Shown here in pieces: positions 22,561 through 42,307 of a stretch of 43,770 nt of DNA (position 1 is its first letter; every line of letters starts with the position of its first letter). The notes beneath the pieces were generated by a model, which saw only the letters and a program-made list of their open reading frames with translations, did no database searches and was not told the DNA's origin. Origin of the DNA: a virus. The stretch is from positions 1 to 43,770 of IMG/VR virus record IMGVR_UViG_3300042691_037438; one strand, 5' to 3'. A program made the position numbers and the translations under genes.

Positions 22561-23814
22561 TTATTGAATTAAGTTAGTTTGATCATTAGCCCAATTCTTT
22601 GGTAAAATAAAATTAGCACGTGAAAACTCTAAACGATCAATAAATTTTATCCCATTTTGATCTTGATCAAATGCAACGTATCCTTCGGGGTTTGTAACCT
22701 TTATATCACCATTGGGCATTACCAGGAATGTCCCCATCGCTGCTGAACGCATTATTTCATTATATTTTTGAATAAAAATGTCTTTTATTTGTTTAACATC
22801 TCTGATAAAATTCAATAGATGAATGAATATATCTTCATTAGTATTTAATTTGGTAATAAATTTTTCTTTTTCAGCAATTTTTGTTTCTTTCCTCTTTAAC
22901 TTTTCGATCTCACTATCCATTCTGGAACCGACCCACATTACGAACTCATTGAATGAATATCTCAAATCATTTAAAAATTCTCCTTGTTTAATTTTTGAAT
23001 TAAGAAATATATTGATCAATTCAGATGTTTTTTTATCTAATAATGCAAAATTAATTAAATTAATATGCGTATTAGCATTTTTTAAAGTTTTATAAACAAA
23101 ATTTGTTTCAAGTTCTGTCAAGCTAATAGATCCTGCTTTGTTTTCAAATAAAGCATCTATAATATAAGCACTTTTACTTTTTAAGTGTTCAACAGAAATG
23201 CCAAATTGTTTGTTTATAAATCGCTGTTTACCATCTTTATCTATACTAGGATCATACTTTGTATGAAATGCAACACCTATATTATATTTCAATAATGTTT
23301 TAGCTTCTTTTGAAGACTCAGGAAATGTATATAATATAGTATTGGGCCTAAATCCAATGTATTTCTTATTATCAATAGTATATTTTTGTAATAGCCCAGG
23401 CCAAAATAGCATATCACCCTGATATACACCATCAAAATCTACATTTTTGAGTGAGTTAAATGCATTAATTAGTTTGATGACTAATCCTGGGGCATCACTA
23501 TGATTAGTCTTTATGTCTTTTATACTATATGATAGAAGTGGTTCAGCATTAAATGCACTTTTTGTTGATAAAAAGAATTTGCCTTTAGAATCCCTGCCGC
23601 AAACTATTGCGGGTGCACCATCTATTTTTACGGTCATATTAATCTTTCTATCTGACCCACTCTTAAGTATATTCATCAATGATTCAATATATTGAAGTGT
23701 TTTAATAGCTCCTTCCTTGCCTTTCTTAAGAATTAATTCATCTAGATGGGTTAAATGCTTGTTGGTCTGGTCGGCATTTTCCATCAACATAAAATAATCT
23801 TTAAATTTTTTCAT
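22561..23814 (-). CDS. Ligase-like nucleotidyltransferase-domain protein in the tail operon
   Basis: A 417-aa protein whose fragments follow the order of covalent nucleotidyltransferase motifs: a KxDG motif I in TVKIDGAPAIVCG (Lys63, Asp65, Gly66); a motif-III-like FDGVYQGDMLF (127-137); YIGFRPNTILYTF (about 142-154); a motif-IV-like NPEGYVAFD (375-383); and a motif-V-like IKFIDRLEF with Lys390. Between III and IV there is a long helical insertion with a Lys/Glu coiled coil (IEKLKRKETKIAEKEKFITK). If genuine, it would bind ATP through Lys63 and act as a DNA or RNA ligase or as another adenylating enzyme. It lies 10 nt after TerL. Motif spacing is unusual, so the enzymatic call is an inference; loss of activity or a structural role is possible. 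Confidence 0.6.
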   Translation of the reverse strand: MKKFKDYFMLMENADQTNKHLTHLDELILKKGKEGAIKTLQYIESLMNILKSGSDRKINMTVKIDGAPAIVCGRDSKGKFFLSTKSAFNAEPLLSYSIKDIKTNHSDAPGLVIKLINAFNSLKNVDFDGVYQGDMLFWPGLLQKYTIDNKKYIGFRPNTILYTFPESSKEAKTLLKYNIGVAFHTKYDPSIDKDGKQRFINKQFGISVEHLKSKSAYIIDALFENKAGSISLTELETNFVYKTLKNANTHINLINFALLDKKTSELINIFLNSKIKQGEFLNDLRYSFNEFVMWVGSRMDSEIEKLKRKETKIAEKEKFITKLNTNEDIFIHLLNFIRDVKQIKDIFIQKYNEIMRSAAMGTFLVMPNGDIKVTNPEGYVAFDQDQNGIKFIDRLEFSRANFILPKNWANDQTNLIQ

Positions 23815-23821
23815 ATTCTTT

Positions 23822-23829
23822 TATTTACC
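23822..23829 (-). promoter_or_regulatory. Weak late-type box (GGTAAATA) before the ligase-like gene
   Basis: GGTAAATA overlaps the TerL stop region, 7 nt before ATG 23814. It matches only the TAAATA core, so it may be chance. Confidence 0.3.
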
Positions 23830-25273
23830 CCATAAATTTCCATCCGGCCGACATCAGGTCACTTAAATCACTATTAAATACAGGAGCTCCTAGGACTATA
23901 GGCATATTATCATATGATTCACTTTCATCTTTTAAATTATTATTTTTGAGAGAAGATTTTATCCAATCATAAGGCCTAATTATAGCTGGTTTGTTATTAT
24001 CGTCTGTGGCAATTATTTCAAAATATTTTGATATTAATTTTTCATGCAATATTAATAACGCCCAGCCCAATGACATAACTCTATCATCATGTTTATCTTG
24101 TTTAGCTTTCCATGTGCCATTAGGTGTTCTTACGAAGTCTCTCAGTTCTTCAACAGTAGCCATGTCATTAATCCTCACTGAATCTATTGTATTAATCCAA
24201 TAACGTTGATTGGTGACATTGTCATATTTTGTATTTGTATGACAAACAACCCCCAAAGGTATATTAGTTCTACTCAATTCTTTATATCCGTGTGAAATTA
24301 TGTTCTCATACTGAAAATCTTTTCTTAAATTATCAACAACCTGTGCACCACACTTATCTCTCTCAATTAATAATAAAGGTGATCCCCATTGTGTTAATAT
24401 ACTATGTAATTTGCTCGTAAACTCGATAGGTGTAATAGAATTGCTAGCATAAACAGCAACCTGATTGATTGCTCTTAAGTTAGTTAAATCTAGTATTTGT
24501 ACTATAGTACTATCCTTTCCAGCACCTTCTGCTACGTCAACACCAGCTACATATATTCTACCTTCTTTTGGCAATTCCCATACCTTATAAGCACCATCCA
24601 TATAAATGTGTTCAGGTTGACTAGTTTTGCTTCTTAAATTATCAAATGTCGTAGCATTAATTGATGATTCGCCTATTTCATCAAATATACACTCAAATTC
24701 TCTTAAGAAGTCTTCTGGTGAAGCCAATGACCCCATGGTTTCCTTCTTCCATTTTTCATCACGCCCTGGAACATCATACCAAGGTACTTTCATACTAACC
24801 CAATTATTTTCTCCTTTTATAGATCCACTGTATAATTTGTAGAACAACCCGGAAGTATCACGGGGCGTTGATGCCATTATGATCTTTGACTTCTTTGAGT
24901 TCGATATAATAGGATATACAGACGCCCAAAAACTATCTAATAGATGGCAATTGTGTGACACAACACCGTTCGACAAATATTTTCCACCATCAACACCCAC
25001 GACATCATACGCATCGATTTTTTTGTATTTTTTTATACTCTTTACAATTTTAAATCCTTCTAAAGATTTAATTTTTTTATTTCTGCTTGATTTTGCTGTT
25101 GTGAAATTACCATTTATACACTGCAATTCGTGGTCTTCACTGCATATGAGCTCAGATGTATCATTAAATATCAATTTAACTGATGATATATTTTTATTCT
25201 TAATGACACCCTCAAATGTTTTCCATCCCTCAGCTGTGAGAATTTCCCAGTCTTTGGCATTATTATCTTCCAT
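23825..25273 (-). CDS. gp17: Terminase large subunit gp17, C-terminal half fused behind C-terminal split-intein fragment
   Basis: The 482-aa ORF has two parts. Residues 1-108 are a C-terminal intein fragment: WEILTAEGWKTFEGV, block-B-like CSEDHEL (His48), and the terminal YDVVGVDGGKYLSNGVVSHN with His107-Asn108. Cys109 is the +1 extein residue. Residues 109-482 continue the terminase: PIISNSKKSKIIMASTP (ATPase coupling motif), then the RNase-H-like nuclease with AGVDVAEGAGKDSTIVQILD (first acidic site), LLIERDKCGAQVVDNL (second) and AKQDKHDDRVMSLGWA (third). It cuts concatemeric DNA and, after splicing to the N-half, packages it into proheads. The ATG overlaps the endonuclease gene by 11 nt. 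Alone this half lacks Walker A and B and cannot be a motor. Confidence 0.95.
   Translation of the reverse strand: MEDNNAKDWEILTAEGWKTFEGVIKNKNISSVKLIFNDTSELICSEDHELQCINGNFTTAKSSRNKKIKSLEGFKIVKSIKKYKKIDAYDVVGVDGGKYLSNGVVSHNCHLLDSFWASVYPIISNSKKSKIIMASTPRDTSGLFYKLYSGSIKGENNWVSMKVPWYDVPGRDEKWKKETMGSLASPEDFLREFECIFDEIGESSINATTFDNLRSKTSQPEHIYMDGAYKVWELPKEGRIYVAGVDVAEGAGKDSTIVQILDLTNLRAINQVAVYASNSITPIEFTSKLHSILTQWGSPLLLIERDKCGAQVVDNLRKDFQYENIISHGYKELSRTNIPLGVVCHTNTKYDNVTNQRYWINTIDSVRINDMATVEELRDFVRTPNGTWKAKQDKHDDRVMSLGWALLILHEKLISKYFEIIATDDNNKPAIIRPYDWIKSSLKNNNLKDESESYDNMPIVLGAPVFNSDLSDLMSAGWKFMG
24950..25273 (-). other. C-terminal split-intein fragment (108 aa) of TerL
   Basis: Codons 1-108 of the C-half. 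It carries a block-B-like SEDH, the block F/G region ending VVSHN, and is followed by TGC (24949-24947) for the +1 Cys. Most of the intein is in this fragment, opposite to typical split inteins, whose C-part is about 35 residues. Confidence 0.93.
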
Positions 25274-26171
25274 AAAATTTATAATTCAATTCTGTTACTA
25301 CCTTATAAGTAAAATTATTTGCATTACACCACTCTTCTGCTGCGCGTTTCTTACTAATAAAATTAAGACTATTTAATTCTGAAGAAGGTTTTATTTCGTA
25401 TATGATTCTATTTTCTGGATCTGTGAAATCTGTTATATAGACTCGCACATTTTCATTTTCTGTGTATTCAATTCTAGTAAATTCATACTTTAAATTGGGA
25501 TTTTCTTCATGAAATATTAATTCCCAATTACTCCTGTATTGTATATTGGTTATATGTGATTTTATTCTTTTTGCGCGCTTCCTATTTTCAGATTTGGGTG
25601 TCAATTCTCCACTCAGTATCTTTTTTTTCATTGTGTGTGAAATCTTCTCACAGATACCGTTTAATATACGTCTTTCCTTATCGAGTTTTTTGTACTCTTC
25701 AGTCCACCTTTTCGCGTTACTTTCACCTATTCTTTGTTTGTTTATTTCAGATAATTTTCTACCTGTCAACGATACTCTTTTATGTTCTCTGGCTTCACTT
25801 GTTTGAAGCATCCATGTGCCGCGATCTTTTGCAATTTGAGATAATAATCTATGCTTACAAACTAGCTCGCTACACGTTTTTCCCAAGCTGCGATTTACCA
25901 TTACTACTTCTTTATGACAAAAGGGGCATTCAAGTTGTTTATTGTCAATTAAATCACACAAAAATTTGCATCTCATAAAAAGTGTAATGTTTTTATACTG
26001 TTTTGTATGGTGGTATATAGATTCCACTAATTTAGAATTGAATTTTTGCGAATTTATTTTTGGTACTATAAGTTTTTGTTTTTTAAAAAAATTGATTTTT
26101 ATCAAAGTTATGGTTTCATTTATCGAATAAAGTGATTCAATATTTTTTATCATAATTTTATTGTTGTGCAT
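25263..26171 (-). CDS. Free-standing homing endonuclease between the split-intein halves (PD-(D/E)XK-like, NUMOD3)
   Basis: A 302-aa ORF (or 296 from the second ATG at 26153). Landmarks: a possible zinc site Cys82-x2-Cys85 with Cys100-x4-Cys105; a NUMOD3-like DNA-binding element around GRKLSEINKQRIGESNAKRW (137-156); basic KRAKRIKSH (198-206); and a nuclease core YRSNWE (Glu217), YITDF (Asp248), YEIKP (Glu259, Lys261), the E-D-ExK arrangement of PD-(D/E)XK nucleases, ending AAEEWCNANNFTYKVVTE. It overlaps the N-half by 14 nt and the C-half by 11 nt and is in a third frame. By analogy with fractured genes in marine phage data, it probably cuts intein-free terminase alleles and spreads the whole cassette. 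Family placement (Vsr-like versus I-Ssp6803I-like) is open. Confidence 0.85.
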   Translation of the reverse strand: MHNNKIMIKNIESLYSINETITLIKINFFKKQKLIVPKINSQKFNSKLVESIYHHTKQYKNITLFMRCKFLCDLIDNKQLECPFCHKEVVMVNRSLGKTCSELVCKHRLLSQIAKDRGTWMLQTSEAREHKRVSLTGRKLSEINKQRIGESNAKRWTEEYKKLDKERRILNGICEKISHTMKKKILSGELTPKSENRKRAKRIKSHITNIQYRSNWELIFHEENPNLKYEFTRIEYTENENVRVYITDFTDPENRIIYEIKPSSELNSLNFISKKRAAEEWCNANNFTYKVVTELNYKFYGR

Positions 26172-26805
26172 TAAAAAAATTAAAAGCTTCTTCTATTGAT
26201 AAATTTTTAATATCTCCTGTTTTTTTGGATCTTATTTGTATTTGGCTAGTGCCTTCTAAACATTCAATCCAGTCGGCTTCGTCCACAAATAATAAATTTG
26301 CTGAACTGCCGCGGCCAGCAGAACCAGTTGTAGTAGTAATGCCTATGCGTGATCCATTAGCCAACTCCATAGACTCTTTACCGTATTCTTTAACACCTGG
26401 TTTGAGCCAGTTTGGCAGCTCTTCATATGCAAGACGTATGCGTTTGAAAATTTCTTTCGCGGTACTTTCTTTATTTGCAACAATCAGGATATTCTGATGC
26501 TCGTTAAAACAAGCAGTCCAAAGACAATATATAGTAGATATCGTACTTTTACCACTTTGACGTGCAAATAATAATAACGAAAATCGATTATCCCTCATCA
26601 TACGAAGTGATTTTTTTTGATATGTATGAAGAGGTATTTTTATTTTACCATCATCTGGTGATATGATATGAAAATAATTTTCAGCAAAGTGTAAAATATT
26701 TTCACCACATTTTTTAATTTCTTTAATTTCTTCTATACCATAGTCAAACTGGGCGTCGACAGTAGGTAAATTAGGATTATTCAAATAGACTTTTTGTCTG
26801 CCCAT
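26158..26805 (-). CDS. gp17: Terminase large subunit gp17, N-terminal ATPase half ending in N-terminal split-intein fragment
   Basis: The 215-aa ORF holds the packaging-motor ATPase. Residues 1-181 are extein: an adenine-motif-like region with PLHTYQKKSLRMM (58-70), Walker A ARQSGKST (81-88), and Walker B LLFVDEAD with Asp175 and Glu176. Residue Cys182 starts the intein, giving CLEGTSQIQI and then a short helix NLSIEEAFNF before the stop. Joining residue 181 to Cys109 of the C-half reads VDEADWIE-CHLLDSFW, which aligns with uninterrupted T4 gp17 at the same place, and yields 555 residues (T4 610). No late box was found before ATG 26805; it is divergent from the plus-strand gene at 26824, 18 nt away. 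Confidence 0.95.
   Translation of the reverse strand: MGRQKVYLNNPNLPTVDAQFDYGIEEIKEIKKCGENILHFAENYFHIISPDDGKIKIPLHTYQKKSLRMMRDNRFSLLLFARQSGKSTISTIYCLWTACFNEHQNILIVANKESTAKEIFKRIRLAYEELPNWLKPGVKEYGKESMELANGSRIGITTTTGSAGRGSSANLLFVDEADWIECLEGTSQIQIRSKKTGDIKNLSIEEAFNFFNAQQ
26161..26262 (-). other. N-terminal split-intein fragment (34 aa) of TerL
   Basis: Codons 182-215. Starts with the catalytic Cys (TGT, 26262-26260) and block-A-like CLEGTSQIQI, and ends NAQQ at a TAA. The short N-part matches the atypically split class (AceL-TerL has about 25 residues as I recall it). Confidence 0.92.
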
Positions 26806-37890: not shown

Positions 37891-38259
37891 TTAAAGCTGT
37901 TCTATTTTTTGCAATCGAATATCAATATCATTTAATTTATTTTCAATATTTCTGAGAATATTATATATTTTTTCATTATCAGCAGAATTATTGAAATTGA
38001 ATTCTAATTGTCCTGGATTATCAGTTGTTGTTGGTTGTATATGAACTTGTGGTGGTGCTGGTGGTGGAATTCTGGTTTGAGAGTATACATCTGTTGGGTG
38101 TATTTTATTTGATAAAATATTTGTAGCTAATGCTTTAAATTCACTACTTTTGGGTTTTAAATGTTGTGAATGTCCGACAATATTTTTATCAAGCTTTAAA
38201 ATCTCTCCATAGGTTTGACCTATGAAGCTTGTCAGCATATTATTAATATCTTCTTCCAT
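37891..38259 (-). CDS. Hypothetical Pro-rich protein with C-terminal coiled coil (122 aa)
   Basis: Not recognised. Three parts: helical N-terminus (MEEDINNMLTSFIGQTYGEI), a Pro/Thr-rich linker (RIPPPAPPQVHIQPTTTDNP) and a C-terminal helix IYNILRNIENKLNDIDIRLQ with heptad spacing, preceded by GQLEFNF. It is placed between gp32 and gp45; its ATG overlaps the gp32 stop by one base (TAATG), and gp45 begins 9 nt after its stop. The GQLEFNF element resembles QLxLF-type clamp-binding motifs and could dock on the neighbouring clamp, but this is only a suggestion. Confidence 0.62.
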   Translation of the reverse strand: MEEDINNMLTSFIGQTYGEILKLDKNIVGHSQHLKPKSSEFKALATNILSNKIHPTDVYSQTRIPPPAPPQVHIQPTTTDNPGQLEFNFNNSADNEKIYNILRNIENKLNDIDIRLQKIEQL

Positions 38260-39119
38260 TATTCAAGACCCTTTAAAAGTTCTTTAACTGTATCGTCATC
38301 TAGAATATCATCATTGGCATCTGATTTAACAGAAGATGTAGTTGTTTTAGTAACGGTTGTTGGTTCTGATAATACAGGATCTGGTTCTTGTGTGATTGGA
38401 GCAAGTGCAGAAGATGTAGTACCTTGGCACAGGAAATGTTCGTTCCACAATTCACGCAGTTCATCTGCTGTCTTAATTCCTACGATCTTTTTCAAATCAT
38501 GAATTGAATCATATAATTCTCTTTGTTTAGATTCAGTCAAACCTAGGTCCTGTGGTGTTGTAAAACGTGATGAAACGTAAGATGGATATTCACCCTGCTT
38601 TTCAACTTTAATCTTTAAATTAACACCTTCTTTTGACAAATCAAAAATGCGGGGCCCAAATTCTGAAGCATCTTCACCATCAATTGCTTCATCAATAATC
38701 TTCGCCAATTGACGACCATAACGAATAATTTTTACTGAACCATTATTTGTTGGATTTGTGGGGTCATCAATAACATATGCATTGACCATCCACTTTTCTG
38801 ACCTATTAATCTTCTCTGCTTTCTTTTTTTCGGCATCCGTACCTAAACGCAAAATACGATATCTCTCTTCTTGAATAGGATCGCGTTCGTTAAATGATTG
38901 AAGTGATACTGCCGACACAAATTGTCCTGTTGCGAATGATTGCCATCCATTTAGGAAATAATGAAAAAATGTATTTTCTGGTGATTTTGAATTTGGCAAT
39001 AGACGCACTGTATAAGTCTTACCTACTTCTAGCTTCATAATATCTTTATAAGATGAACCACCTGTATCATCTTTTGCTAGTGCATTCTTAATTGATTGGA
39101 ACATTGATGTTGTATACAT
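38259..39119 (-). CDS. gp32: Single-stranded DNA binding protein gp32 without the zinc site
   Basis: A 286-aa protein (T4 gp32 is 301). The OB-fold core contains LEVGKTYTVRLLPNSKSPEN, FFHYFLNGWQSFATGQF and KWMVNAYVIDDPTNPTNNGS, then VKIIRYGRQLAKIIDEAID. The C-terminus is the expected acidic tail ending DDDTVKELLKGLE, which in T4 recruits partner replication proteins. The protein contains only one Cys (near residue 235), so the T4 Cys-His zinc finger is lost. The N-terminus is MYTTSMFQSIKNALAK; the second Met (39104) may be the true start, as T4 starts MFKR. Next to gp45 and downstream of a DHH-type gene. Confidence 0.88.
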   Translation of the reverse strand: MYTTSMFQSIKNALAKDDTGGSSYKDIMKLEVGKTYTVRLLPNSKSPENTFFHYFLNGWQSFATGQFVSAVSLQSFNERDPIQEERYRILRLGTDAEKKKAEKINRSEKWMVNAYVIDDPTNPTNNGSVKIIRYGRQLAKIIDEAIDGEDASEFGPRIFDLSKEGVNLKIKVEKQGEYPSYVSSRFTTPQDLGLTESKQRELYDSIHDLKKIVGIKTADELRELWNEHFLCQGTTSSALAPITQEPDPVLSEPTTVTKTTTSSVKSDANDDILDDDTVKELLKGLE

Positions 39120-40953: not shown

Positions 40954-40982
40954 TATATAGTCAATATGGAATATTTTGTCAA
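40954..40982 (-). promoter_or_regulatory. Sigma70-type promoter for the DHH-gp32-gp45 operon
   Basis: TTGACA (40982-40977), exactly 17 nt, then TATATA (40959-40954). The -35 overlaps the helicase stop codon. The ATG is 11 nt after the -10, so the leader should be only about 4-5 nt. Confidence 0.72.
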
Positions 40983-42307
40983 CTATTTGATAATGACGCC
41001 AATAAATCTCGTGCAGATTCAGAAGACTCTACCATAGTTGCCAATTCTGCATCTTCTGTGAGTGTCAATGTCGAATAATCTATTTTAAATGCAGATGAAC
41101 CAAAGTTAGGCCCAAAGCGATTTTTCATCATAGCTATGCGCATAATACCCTGTTCTGCATCTTCTTCTAATTGATAGACTGATGCAATAAAATCACCTGT
41201 TGTTGCCAATCCGTAACTTTCAGATAATGATTGCATAGTTGGTTCTGCAACATCGTATCCGGATCTATTCAATTGTGTTGCTGTAATAAATGGACAATTA
41301 TATACGTATGATAATGCTCTAGTTTGTTCAGATAAATGTTTAACTTTTTCATATGAATTATTGCCATATGTAGTGTGCAATAAATTCAAATAATCTAAGA
41401 CAACAGCATCAACAAATATGCCTTTATTTCTTAACGTTTTAATAAAAGATGATAACTGATTCGGTGTGATAGTAGATGGAGGAAATTCTTTAATTAAAAT
41501 ACGACCCCGCGGATTTCTTTCTTTAATTTCCTCTAACGCATTTTGTAATGTTATTGATTCTTCTCTTAATGTTCGTACAGGTATTTTAGTAGCAGAAGAT
41601 GCAATACGTTTTGCATACATTATTTCCGACATCTCCAATGTAACTAATAAAACTGTCTTGCCTTGTTCTGCAATATTTTTTGCTATGTTGCCAAGAACAA
41701 TACTCTTACCAACATTTGCCTGACCAGCAAATATATATAACGCTCTGCCATTTTGCATGAACCCACCATTTAACTTTTCATCAACCCACTCCCATTTTGA
41801 AGGAATAACCGGTTCATCAGAATTCAATTCTTTGATGAGTTTTTCAGGATTATGATAAAGATCTAATCCTATATCTGTTGTCAAATTGATGTTGCAAGTC
41901 TTTTCGAATTGATCCAATACCCATGATGTATCAGCTTTACCTTGTTGTAATTTATCTGCCACATCAAGCATGGTTTTATATACAGCTCGTTCTTTTAAGT
42001 ACCGTTCTGTATTTTTGATTAATTCATCATGATTATAATTTTTATCTAAAGATTGAATCATCAACAACACATTCTTAAATGAATCTTTCAATTCATGTGT
42101 CGTGAGATAATTTTTTAATTCAGATAGATTCGGTAGACAGTCTCTTTTTTCAAAATATTCTTTAACTAATAAAAACATTGCTTTAATGTCTTTATCTTTA
42201 AAGTAGTCTGGGTCAGTACTGTCTACTACAGAAGAAAAATATTCTTCATCTGTAATCATTTTGAGACAAAATATTTTCTCAAAATGATCTAAATCAATTT
42301 TATCCAT
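40979..42307 (-). CDS. gp41: Replicative DNA helicase gp41 (DnaB-type)
   Basis: A 442-aa protein (T4 gp41 is 475). The N-terminal helical domain is followed by a RecA-like motor with Walker A GQANVGKS at 195-202, an acidic element in VTLEMSEIMYAKR, Walker B VVLDYLNLLHTTYG, and ATQLNRSGYD with an arginine-finger-like position further on (MKNRFGPNFGS). DnaB-family hexamers unwind DNA 5'-to-3' and recruit primase gp61, also present here. It is 36 nt upstream of the DHH gene and 8 nt downstream of the glycosyltransferase. Confidence 0.95.
   Translation of the reverse strand: MDKIDLDHFEKIFCLKMITDEEYFSSVVDSTDPDYFKDKDIKAMFLLVKEYFEKRDCLPNLSELKNYLTTHELKDSFKNVLLMIQSLDKNYNHDELIKNTERYLKERAVYKTMLDVADKLQQGKADTSWVLDQFEKTCNINLTTDIGLDLYHNPEKLIKELNSDEPVIPSKWEWVDEKLNGGFMQNGRALYIFAGQANVGKSIVLGNIAKNIAEQGKTVLLVTLEMSEIMYAKRIASSATKIPVRTLREESITLQNALEEIKERNPRGRILIKEFPPSTITPNQLSSFIKTLRNKGIFVDAVVLDYLNLLHTTYGNNSYEKVKHLSEQTRALSYVYNCPFITATQLNRSGYDVAEPTMQSLSESYGLATTGDFIASVYQLEEDAEQGIMRIAMMKNRFGPNFGSSAFKIDYSTLTLTEDAELATMVESSESARDLLASLSNS

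What the first reader, a model, noticed from the sequence alone, without database searches (positions are those of the whole stretch)
23825..26805. Large terminase split by an atypical trans-splicing intein (34 aa N-part, 108 aa C-part)
Seen: the packaging-motor gene is in two ORFs in different frames. The N-half ends with a Cys-led intein start (CLEGTSQIQI) and the C-half begins with intein sequence ending VVSHN followed by Cys. All splicing residues are present: Cys1, a SEDH block B, penultimate His, terminal Asn, +1 Cys. Joining the exteins restores an uninterrupted terminase. Known: most split inteins divide near the endonuclease site, with a C-part of about 35 residues; a small class (AceL-TerL, from a metagenomic terminase) has a very short N-part. 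This window seems to hold a new member in full genome context. Inference: phage packaging depends on trans-splicing of its motor.
Basis: partly seen in the sequence, partly recalled or inferred. Interest (0 to 1): 0.9.

Follow-up and report, generated by a model that had tools for sequence, protein, structure and literature searches.

The report
Phage packaging motor in two spliced pieces
In this T4-like virus the DNA-packaging motor is encoded as two separate proteins that almost certainly join themselves through a split intein, with a mobile DNA-cutting enzyme gene lodged between the halves; it is a new case, at a new position, of a known kind of arrangement.

Summary
TerL is two ORFs: 215 aa (181 extein + 34 aa IntN) and 482 aa (108 aa IntC + 374 extein). 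The joined exteins (555 aa) are collinear with an uninterrupted relative: 476 of 561 alignment columns are identical and five ATPase/nuclease motifs sit at identical positions.

It is a TnsA-like PD-(D/E)XK nuclease, so this is a 'fractured gene'.

By profile the intein's best solved match is CatC (the AceL/GOS-TerL consensus), but it is not their orthologue. Cat-like inteins sit about 90 residues downstream, with GIY-YIG-like genes in the two loci read out. This one follows Walker B (DEADWIE|C).

At least eight other contigs carry an intein at this site, usually with the same nuclease. In intein alleles the +1 residue is Cys (Thr once); in 15 empty alleles it is Pro, Lys or Ala. Intein halves are under purifying selection.

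Split TerL genes also occur in cultured phages: phiR1-RT, Tequatrovirus, Krischvirus, and Campylobacter Fletchervirus (halves 22-26 kb apart, opposite strands).

Trans-splicing is very probable but not shown biochemically. New member of a known kind. More surprising: several TerL genes are in three pieces, and this nuclease clade lies between intein halves in at least four phage gene families.

The parts
26263..26805 (-). TerL N-extein (181 aa, ATPase: Walker A RQSGKS, Walker B LLFVDE)
26158..26262 (-). IntN, 34 aa plus stop codon, starts with Cys1 (residue 182 of the ORF)
25263..26171 (-). Free-standing TnsA-like PD-(D/E)XK nuclease, 302 aa, probable homing endonuclease
   Evidence: PF08722 E=3.1e-8, all six homologues match; phrog_15427 endonuclease; invariant D248, E259, K261; Foldseek weak best hit TnsA
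24950..25273 (-). IntC, 108 aa, block B SEDH, ends SHN
23825..24949 (-). TerL C-extein, 374 aa plus stop codon, begins with +1 Cys, RNase H-like nuclease

Best explanation
The large terminase of this T4-like phage is a fractured gene. The N-precursor (ATPase half + 34-aa IntN) and the C-precursor (108-aa IntC + nuclease half) are translated separately. The intein halves associate into a class-1 Hint fold: Cys1 attacks the upstream peptide bond, the acyl group moves to the +1 Cys, the terminal Asn cyclises, and a 555-aa TerL is released. The gene between the halves encodes a TnsA-like PD-(D/E)XK homing endonuclease that probably cuts empty terL alleles near the insertion site, so that repair copies the whole IntN-nuclease-IntC cassette. 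Shown here: anatomy, homology, conservation, empty sites and selection. Inferred: splicing chemistry, homing, and dependence of packaging on splicing.
For: Spliced product collinear with the intein-less homologue. Profile match to CatC and gp41-1 inteins. Five further loci with the same three-ORF layout and conserved Cys1, block-B His, SHN and more divergent ones at the same site. The +1 residue is Cys in eight intein alleles and Thr in one, but Pro, Lys or Ala in 15 empty alleles. Purifying selection on IntN and IntC (omega mostly 0.1-0.5 for pairs with unsaturated dS). L133 keeps both intein halves although its nuclease is reduced to a remnant of at most 81 aa. Related TerL split inteins in cultured phages, including Fletchervirus with halves 22-26 kb apart on opposite strands. 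Related AceL-, GOS- and Cat-TerL split inteins splice in vitro (PMC11766414).
Against: No biochemical evidence for this intein. IntC alone gave no confident structure (pLDDT 44) and Pfam's intein model scores below its cut-off. No obvious Shine-Dalgarno sequence stands before the C-precursor. The record is a 43.8 kb fragment, so a second terL elsewhere cannot be excluded.
Confidence: 0.9

Rival explanations
1. Genes in pieces without splicing: the nuclease insertion split terL, and the two chains work as a non-covalent two-part motor with intein relics as tails, as reported for a T-even-like NrdA split by a homing endonuclease (Friedrich 2007, known here only from citations).
For: A precedent exists for another phage gene. 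Splicing itself was not observed.
Against: Relics would not keep Cys1, block-B His, HN and a nucleophile at +1 across alleles only 39-65% identical to the window's IntN and 53-65% to its IntC, nor would +1 switch from Pro/Lys/Ala to Cys or Thr exactly in intein alleles. Omega on both halves is below 1.
Confidence: 0.05
2. RNA-level splicing: the nuclease gene lies in a self-splicing intron, and the spliced mRNA encodes a contiguous cis-splicing intein in TerL (the IBB_35 authors read a similar gene as intein plus intron).
For: Published reading for Campylobacter phage IBB_35 (PMC3322345).
Against: No group I or II intron found by Rfam covariance models, even at E up to 1. The nuclease ORF overlaps both neighbours and fills the space between them. 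The C-precursor keeps its own ATG in all six aligned alleles.
Confidence: 0.02
3. One contiguous intein with an in-frame nuclease, broken by sequencing or assembly errors or rescued by programmed frameshifts.
For: Some related phages have contiguous inteins or a nuclease fused to the N-precursor (VmeM-32, SRB7757, JK32).
Against: Five other contigs show the same separate ORFs with own starts and stops. The distance between IntN stop and nuclease start varies (overlap in the window, gap in L016 and others), so no shared frameshift site is kept.
Confidence: 0.02
4. A decayed gene: an intact terL exists elsewhere in the virus.
For: The record is a fragment.
Against: All active-site motifs are intact. 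Exteins are under strong purifying selection. The gene lies in a structural-gene cluster with tail tube and sheath genes downstream.
Confidence: 0.01

Closest known systems
AceL-TerL / GOS-TerL / engineered Cat-TerL atypical split inteins (25+104, 37+115 and 30+104 aa; PMC11766414)
   Same: TerL gene, very short IntN, long IntC, Cys1 (AceL, Cat), +1 Cys; CatC is the best PDB match (E=5.8e-12)
   Different: Cat-like inteins sit at FE|CEFLGSVDTLI with a GIY-YIG-like gene between the halves in the two loci read out; the window intein sits at DEADWIE|C with a TnsA-like nuclease
Fractured genes of Dassa et al. 2009 (split inteins with a Vsr-like homing endonuclease family; not held, known from citations and own knowledge)
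   Same: Essential phage gene broken at a split intein with a free-standing nuclease gene between the halves
   Different: Nuclease is of the TnsA-like clade by Pfam; split point is atypical (short IntN)
TerL of Yersinia phage phiR1-RT (g166/g167/g168) and Tequatrovirus / Krischvirus members
   Same: Split TerL intein with a nuclease of the same clade (41% identity over 123 aa to phiR1-RT g167) free between the halves or fused to the N-precursor
   Different: Insertion about 5 residues upstream, directly at Walker B DE|C; nuclease shorter (199 aa) or fused
TerL of Campylobacter Fletchervirus (NCTC12673, CP81 'terL1/terL2')
   Same: Split TerL intein with short IntN and about 100 aa IntC, Cys1, SHN|C
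   Different: Halves 22-26 kb apart on opposite strands, with no nuclease between them in one cassette; insertion at DE|C

Membership tests
Split class-1 intein | N-terminal Cys/Ser nucleophile at the end of one extein gene | tested here: met
   Cys1 in all six aligned alleles
Split class-1 intein | Block-B His, penultimate His, terminal Asn, +1 Cys/Ser/Thr | tested here: met
   H82, H141, N142 invariant in the profile alignment; +1 Cys, Thr in L131
Split class-1 intein | Hint fold | tested here: inconclusive
   Profile match to CatC and gp41-1; IntC alone pLDDT 44; fused halves could not be folded
Split class-1 intein | Trans-splicing activity | not testable with these tools
   Needs co-expression and mass spectrometry
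AceL/Cat-TerL intein allele family | Insertion at FE|CEFLGS in TerL | tested here: not met
   Window site is DEADWIE|C; Cat-like loci are all at CEFLGS
Fractured gene (split intein plus free-standing homing endonuclease) | Nuclease gene between two extein genes that each carry an intein half | tested here: met
Fractured gene, Dassa-type | Vsr-like endonuclease family | tested here: not met
   Pfam places all six homologues in TnsA-like N (PF08722), none in a Vsr family
Homing endonuclease | Nuclease catalytic motif | tested here: met
   D248, E259, K261 invariant in six homologues
Homing endonuclease | Cleaves the empty site and drives transfer | tested here: inconclusive
   Empty alleles exist; an island of 85-97% nt identity from the nuclease C-terminus through IntC among L117/L119/L120, against mostly 68-82% in the exteins for the L117 pairs, suggests recent exchange; cleavage not testable here

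The most novel reading that the evidence does not exclude
A TnsA-like PD-(D/E)XK homing-endonuclease clade specialises in fracturing essential phage genes at split inteins (TerL, UvsW-like helicase, clamp loader, another helicase), and some T4-like phages have ended up with packaging motors encoded in three pieces, whose middle piece gives as few as 8-11 residues to the mature protein, so that virion assembly obligatorily depends on one or two orthogonal protein trans-splicing events.
Probability: 0.4. Interest if true: 0.72.

Novelty: new member of a known kind. Interest (0 to 1): 0.52.

Why it matters
It gives an atypical split TerL intein its genome context (nuclease, neighbours, empty alleles) and a new insertion site, and it leads to cultured phages with the same layout, in which the question 'does a phage need protein trans-splicing to package DNA?' can be tested directly. 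It also supplies candidate short-IntN split inteins for protein labelling, and candidate natural systems that need two orthogonal splicing events in one protein.

Tried and rejected
(1) Co-conversion breakpoint between N and C halves. Protein identity to intein-less relatives falls from 95-98% to 77-79% across the site, but DNA identity shows no clear step. The drop reflects stronger constraint on the ATPase domain, so the idea was dropped.
(2) Group I/II intron: no Rfam match.
(3) Structure of IntC alone: pLDDT 44, not used for fold comparison.
(4) Nuclease fold: only weak Foldseek hits (TnsA E=0.03), used as support only.
(5) AceL orthology: rejected by insertion site.
(6) Dassa 2009 could not be read, and the paper library holds only one paper naming AceL-TerL, so novelty statements are limited to what could be searched.

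Full report
What is there. On the minus strand three ORFs follow each other: 26158-26805 (215 aa), 25263-26171 (302 aa) and 23825-25273 (482 aa), with overlaps of 14 and 11 nt. The first is the TerL ATPase half (Pfam Terminase_6N E=3.4e-9), the third the TerL nuclease half (Terminase_6C E=7.6e-7). The first ends with 34 extra residues beginning with Cys; the third begins with 108 extra residues ending SHN before a Cys. Joining the rest gives 555 aa. That product is collinear with the uninterrupted TerL of L007, with 476 identical residues over 561 alignment columns and five motifs (RQSGKS, LLFVDE, VDVAEG, IERDKC, KHDDRV) at the same positions. It overlooked the gene in the middle.

The extra sequences are an intein. 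A single-sequence search finds CatC (6dsl, the consensus of AceL- and GOS-TerL) at E=1.4e-6. A profile of five relatives finds CatC at E=5.8e-12 and gp41-1 at E=1.3e-8 and nothing but inteins below E=0.1. Pfam's intein model is below threshold, and IntC alone gave no confident AlphaFold2 model, so the Hint fold rests on sequence profiles.

The gene in the middle. It matches TnsA-like nucleases (PF08722, all six homologues) and PHROG endonuclease families. The PD-(D/E)XK residues D248, E259 and K261 are invariant. The weak structural matches are led by TnsA, with the catalytic domain of the homing endonuclease I-Bth0305I also listed. Together with the empty alleles this makes it a homing endonuclease in all likelihood; its cutting was not tested.

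Relatives at the same site. L016, L117, L119, L120 and L121 show the same three ORFs, with IntN 33-34 and IntC 108-113 aa. L129, L131 and L133 have inteins at the same place. For pairs with unsaturated dS, omega for IntN and IntC is mostly 0.1-0.5. The +1 residue is Cys in the window, L016, L117, L119, L120, L121, L129 and L133, and Thr in L131. It is Pro (11), Lys (2) or Ala (2) in the 15 empty alleles (some contigs may be the same virus). In L133 the nuclease has shrunk to at most 81 aa while both intein halves remain intact. This is what selection for splicing, not relic sequence, predicts. Among L117, L119 and L120 the stretch from the nuclease C-terminus through IntC is 85-97% identical in DNA, against mostly 68-82% in the exteins for the L117 pairs, which fits recent exchange of the cassette.

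Not AceL-TerL. A scan with CatC found 127 viral-contig relatives, of which 80 were kept. In those kept, the context is FE|CEFLGSVDTLI, about 90 residues downstream of the window's site. In 62 loci where both halves were seen, 60 have a gap of about 585 nt between them. In the two loci read out (L045, L057) the gap holds a 189-aa GIY-YIG-like ORF (the family name rests on reading the sequence, not on a profile scan). The window intein is thus a separate allele family.

Cultured phages. phiR1-RT (g166/g167/g168), Salmonella phage pSe_SNUABM_01 (Tequatrovirus), Krischvirus JK32 and Shewanella phage Thanatos-2 have split TerL inteins at DE|C, with a nuclease that is free or fused to the N-precursor; the phiR1-RT and JK32 nucleases match the same Pfam family. 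In Campylobacter Fletchervirus the halves are 22-26 kb apart on opposite strands, e.g. NCTC12673 46039-46653(-) and 72897-74075(+). The CP81 record calls them terL1 and terL2. Only a trans reaction can join these.

Wider pattern. Of 34 loci with relatives of this nuclease, nearly all of those inspected lie next to or between intein halves, not only in TerL but in UvsW-like helicases, the clamp loader and another helicase; the clear exceptions were L152 and L153. Several TerL genes carry two split inteins and so are in three pieces: L131 (middle extein CLVIDECAFVE, 11 aa), L121, L057 and IBB_35 (middle extein CNIIVVDE, 8 aa). The IBB_35 authors read that gene as an intein plus an intron (PMC3322345).

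Judgement. Trans-splicing of TerL is very probable (0.9) though not demonstrated. The case is a new member, at a new insertion site and with a TnsA-like nuclease, of the known kinds 'atypical split intein' (PMC11766414) and 'fractured gene' (Dassa 2009, not held). Its main value is that it leads to testable cultured phages and to the three-piece genes.

Noticed in passing
L131:1375-5317; L121:2551-6028; L057:985-5070 (also L055, L079); L024 (IBB_35):1553-6799: TerL genes that carry two split inteins and so are encoded in three pieces; in L131 and IBB_35 the middle piece would contribute only 11 and 8 residues to the mature protein.
   Followed up: partly
L134, L136, L137, L139-L142, L144, L146, L148-L151: Relatives of the window's TnsA-like nuclease sit between the halves of split inteins in UvsW-like helicases, the clamp loader and another DNA helicase; there the split is canonical (long IntN, short IntC).
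   Followed up: partly
L021, L022 (NCTC12673); L156, L157 (CP81): Campylobacter Fletchervirus TerL halves, each with an intein half, lie 22-26 kb apart on opposite strands; annotated as hypothetical protein or as terL1/terL2.
   Followed up: partly
L025 (VP-1), L031 (PhiW-14), L026 (VmeM-32), L023/L024 (CP21, IBB_35), L133: Another TerL insertion site at Walker A (GK|C or RQ|C), occupied by contiguous or split inteins.
   Followed up: partly
L133:2813-3055: Nuclease reduced to a remnant of at most 81 aa while both intein halves at this site remain intact.
   Followed up: partly
window 22561-23814 (-): 417-aa DUF6267 protein (E=9.7e-75) next to TerL-C, with a KIDGAP motif resembling the nucleotidyl-transfer motif of ligases.
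   Followed up: no
window 38259-39119 (-) and 40979-42307 (-): gp32-like single-stranded DNA-binding protein and DnaB-like helicase; with the tail sheath gene they mark the window as a T4-like myovirus.
   Followed up: no
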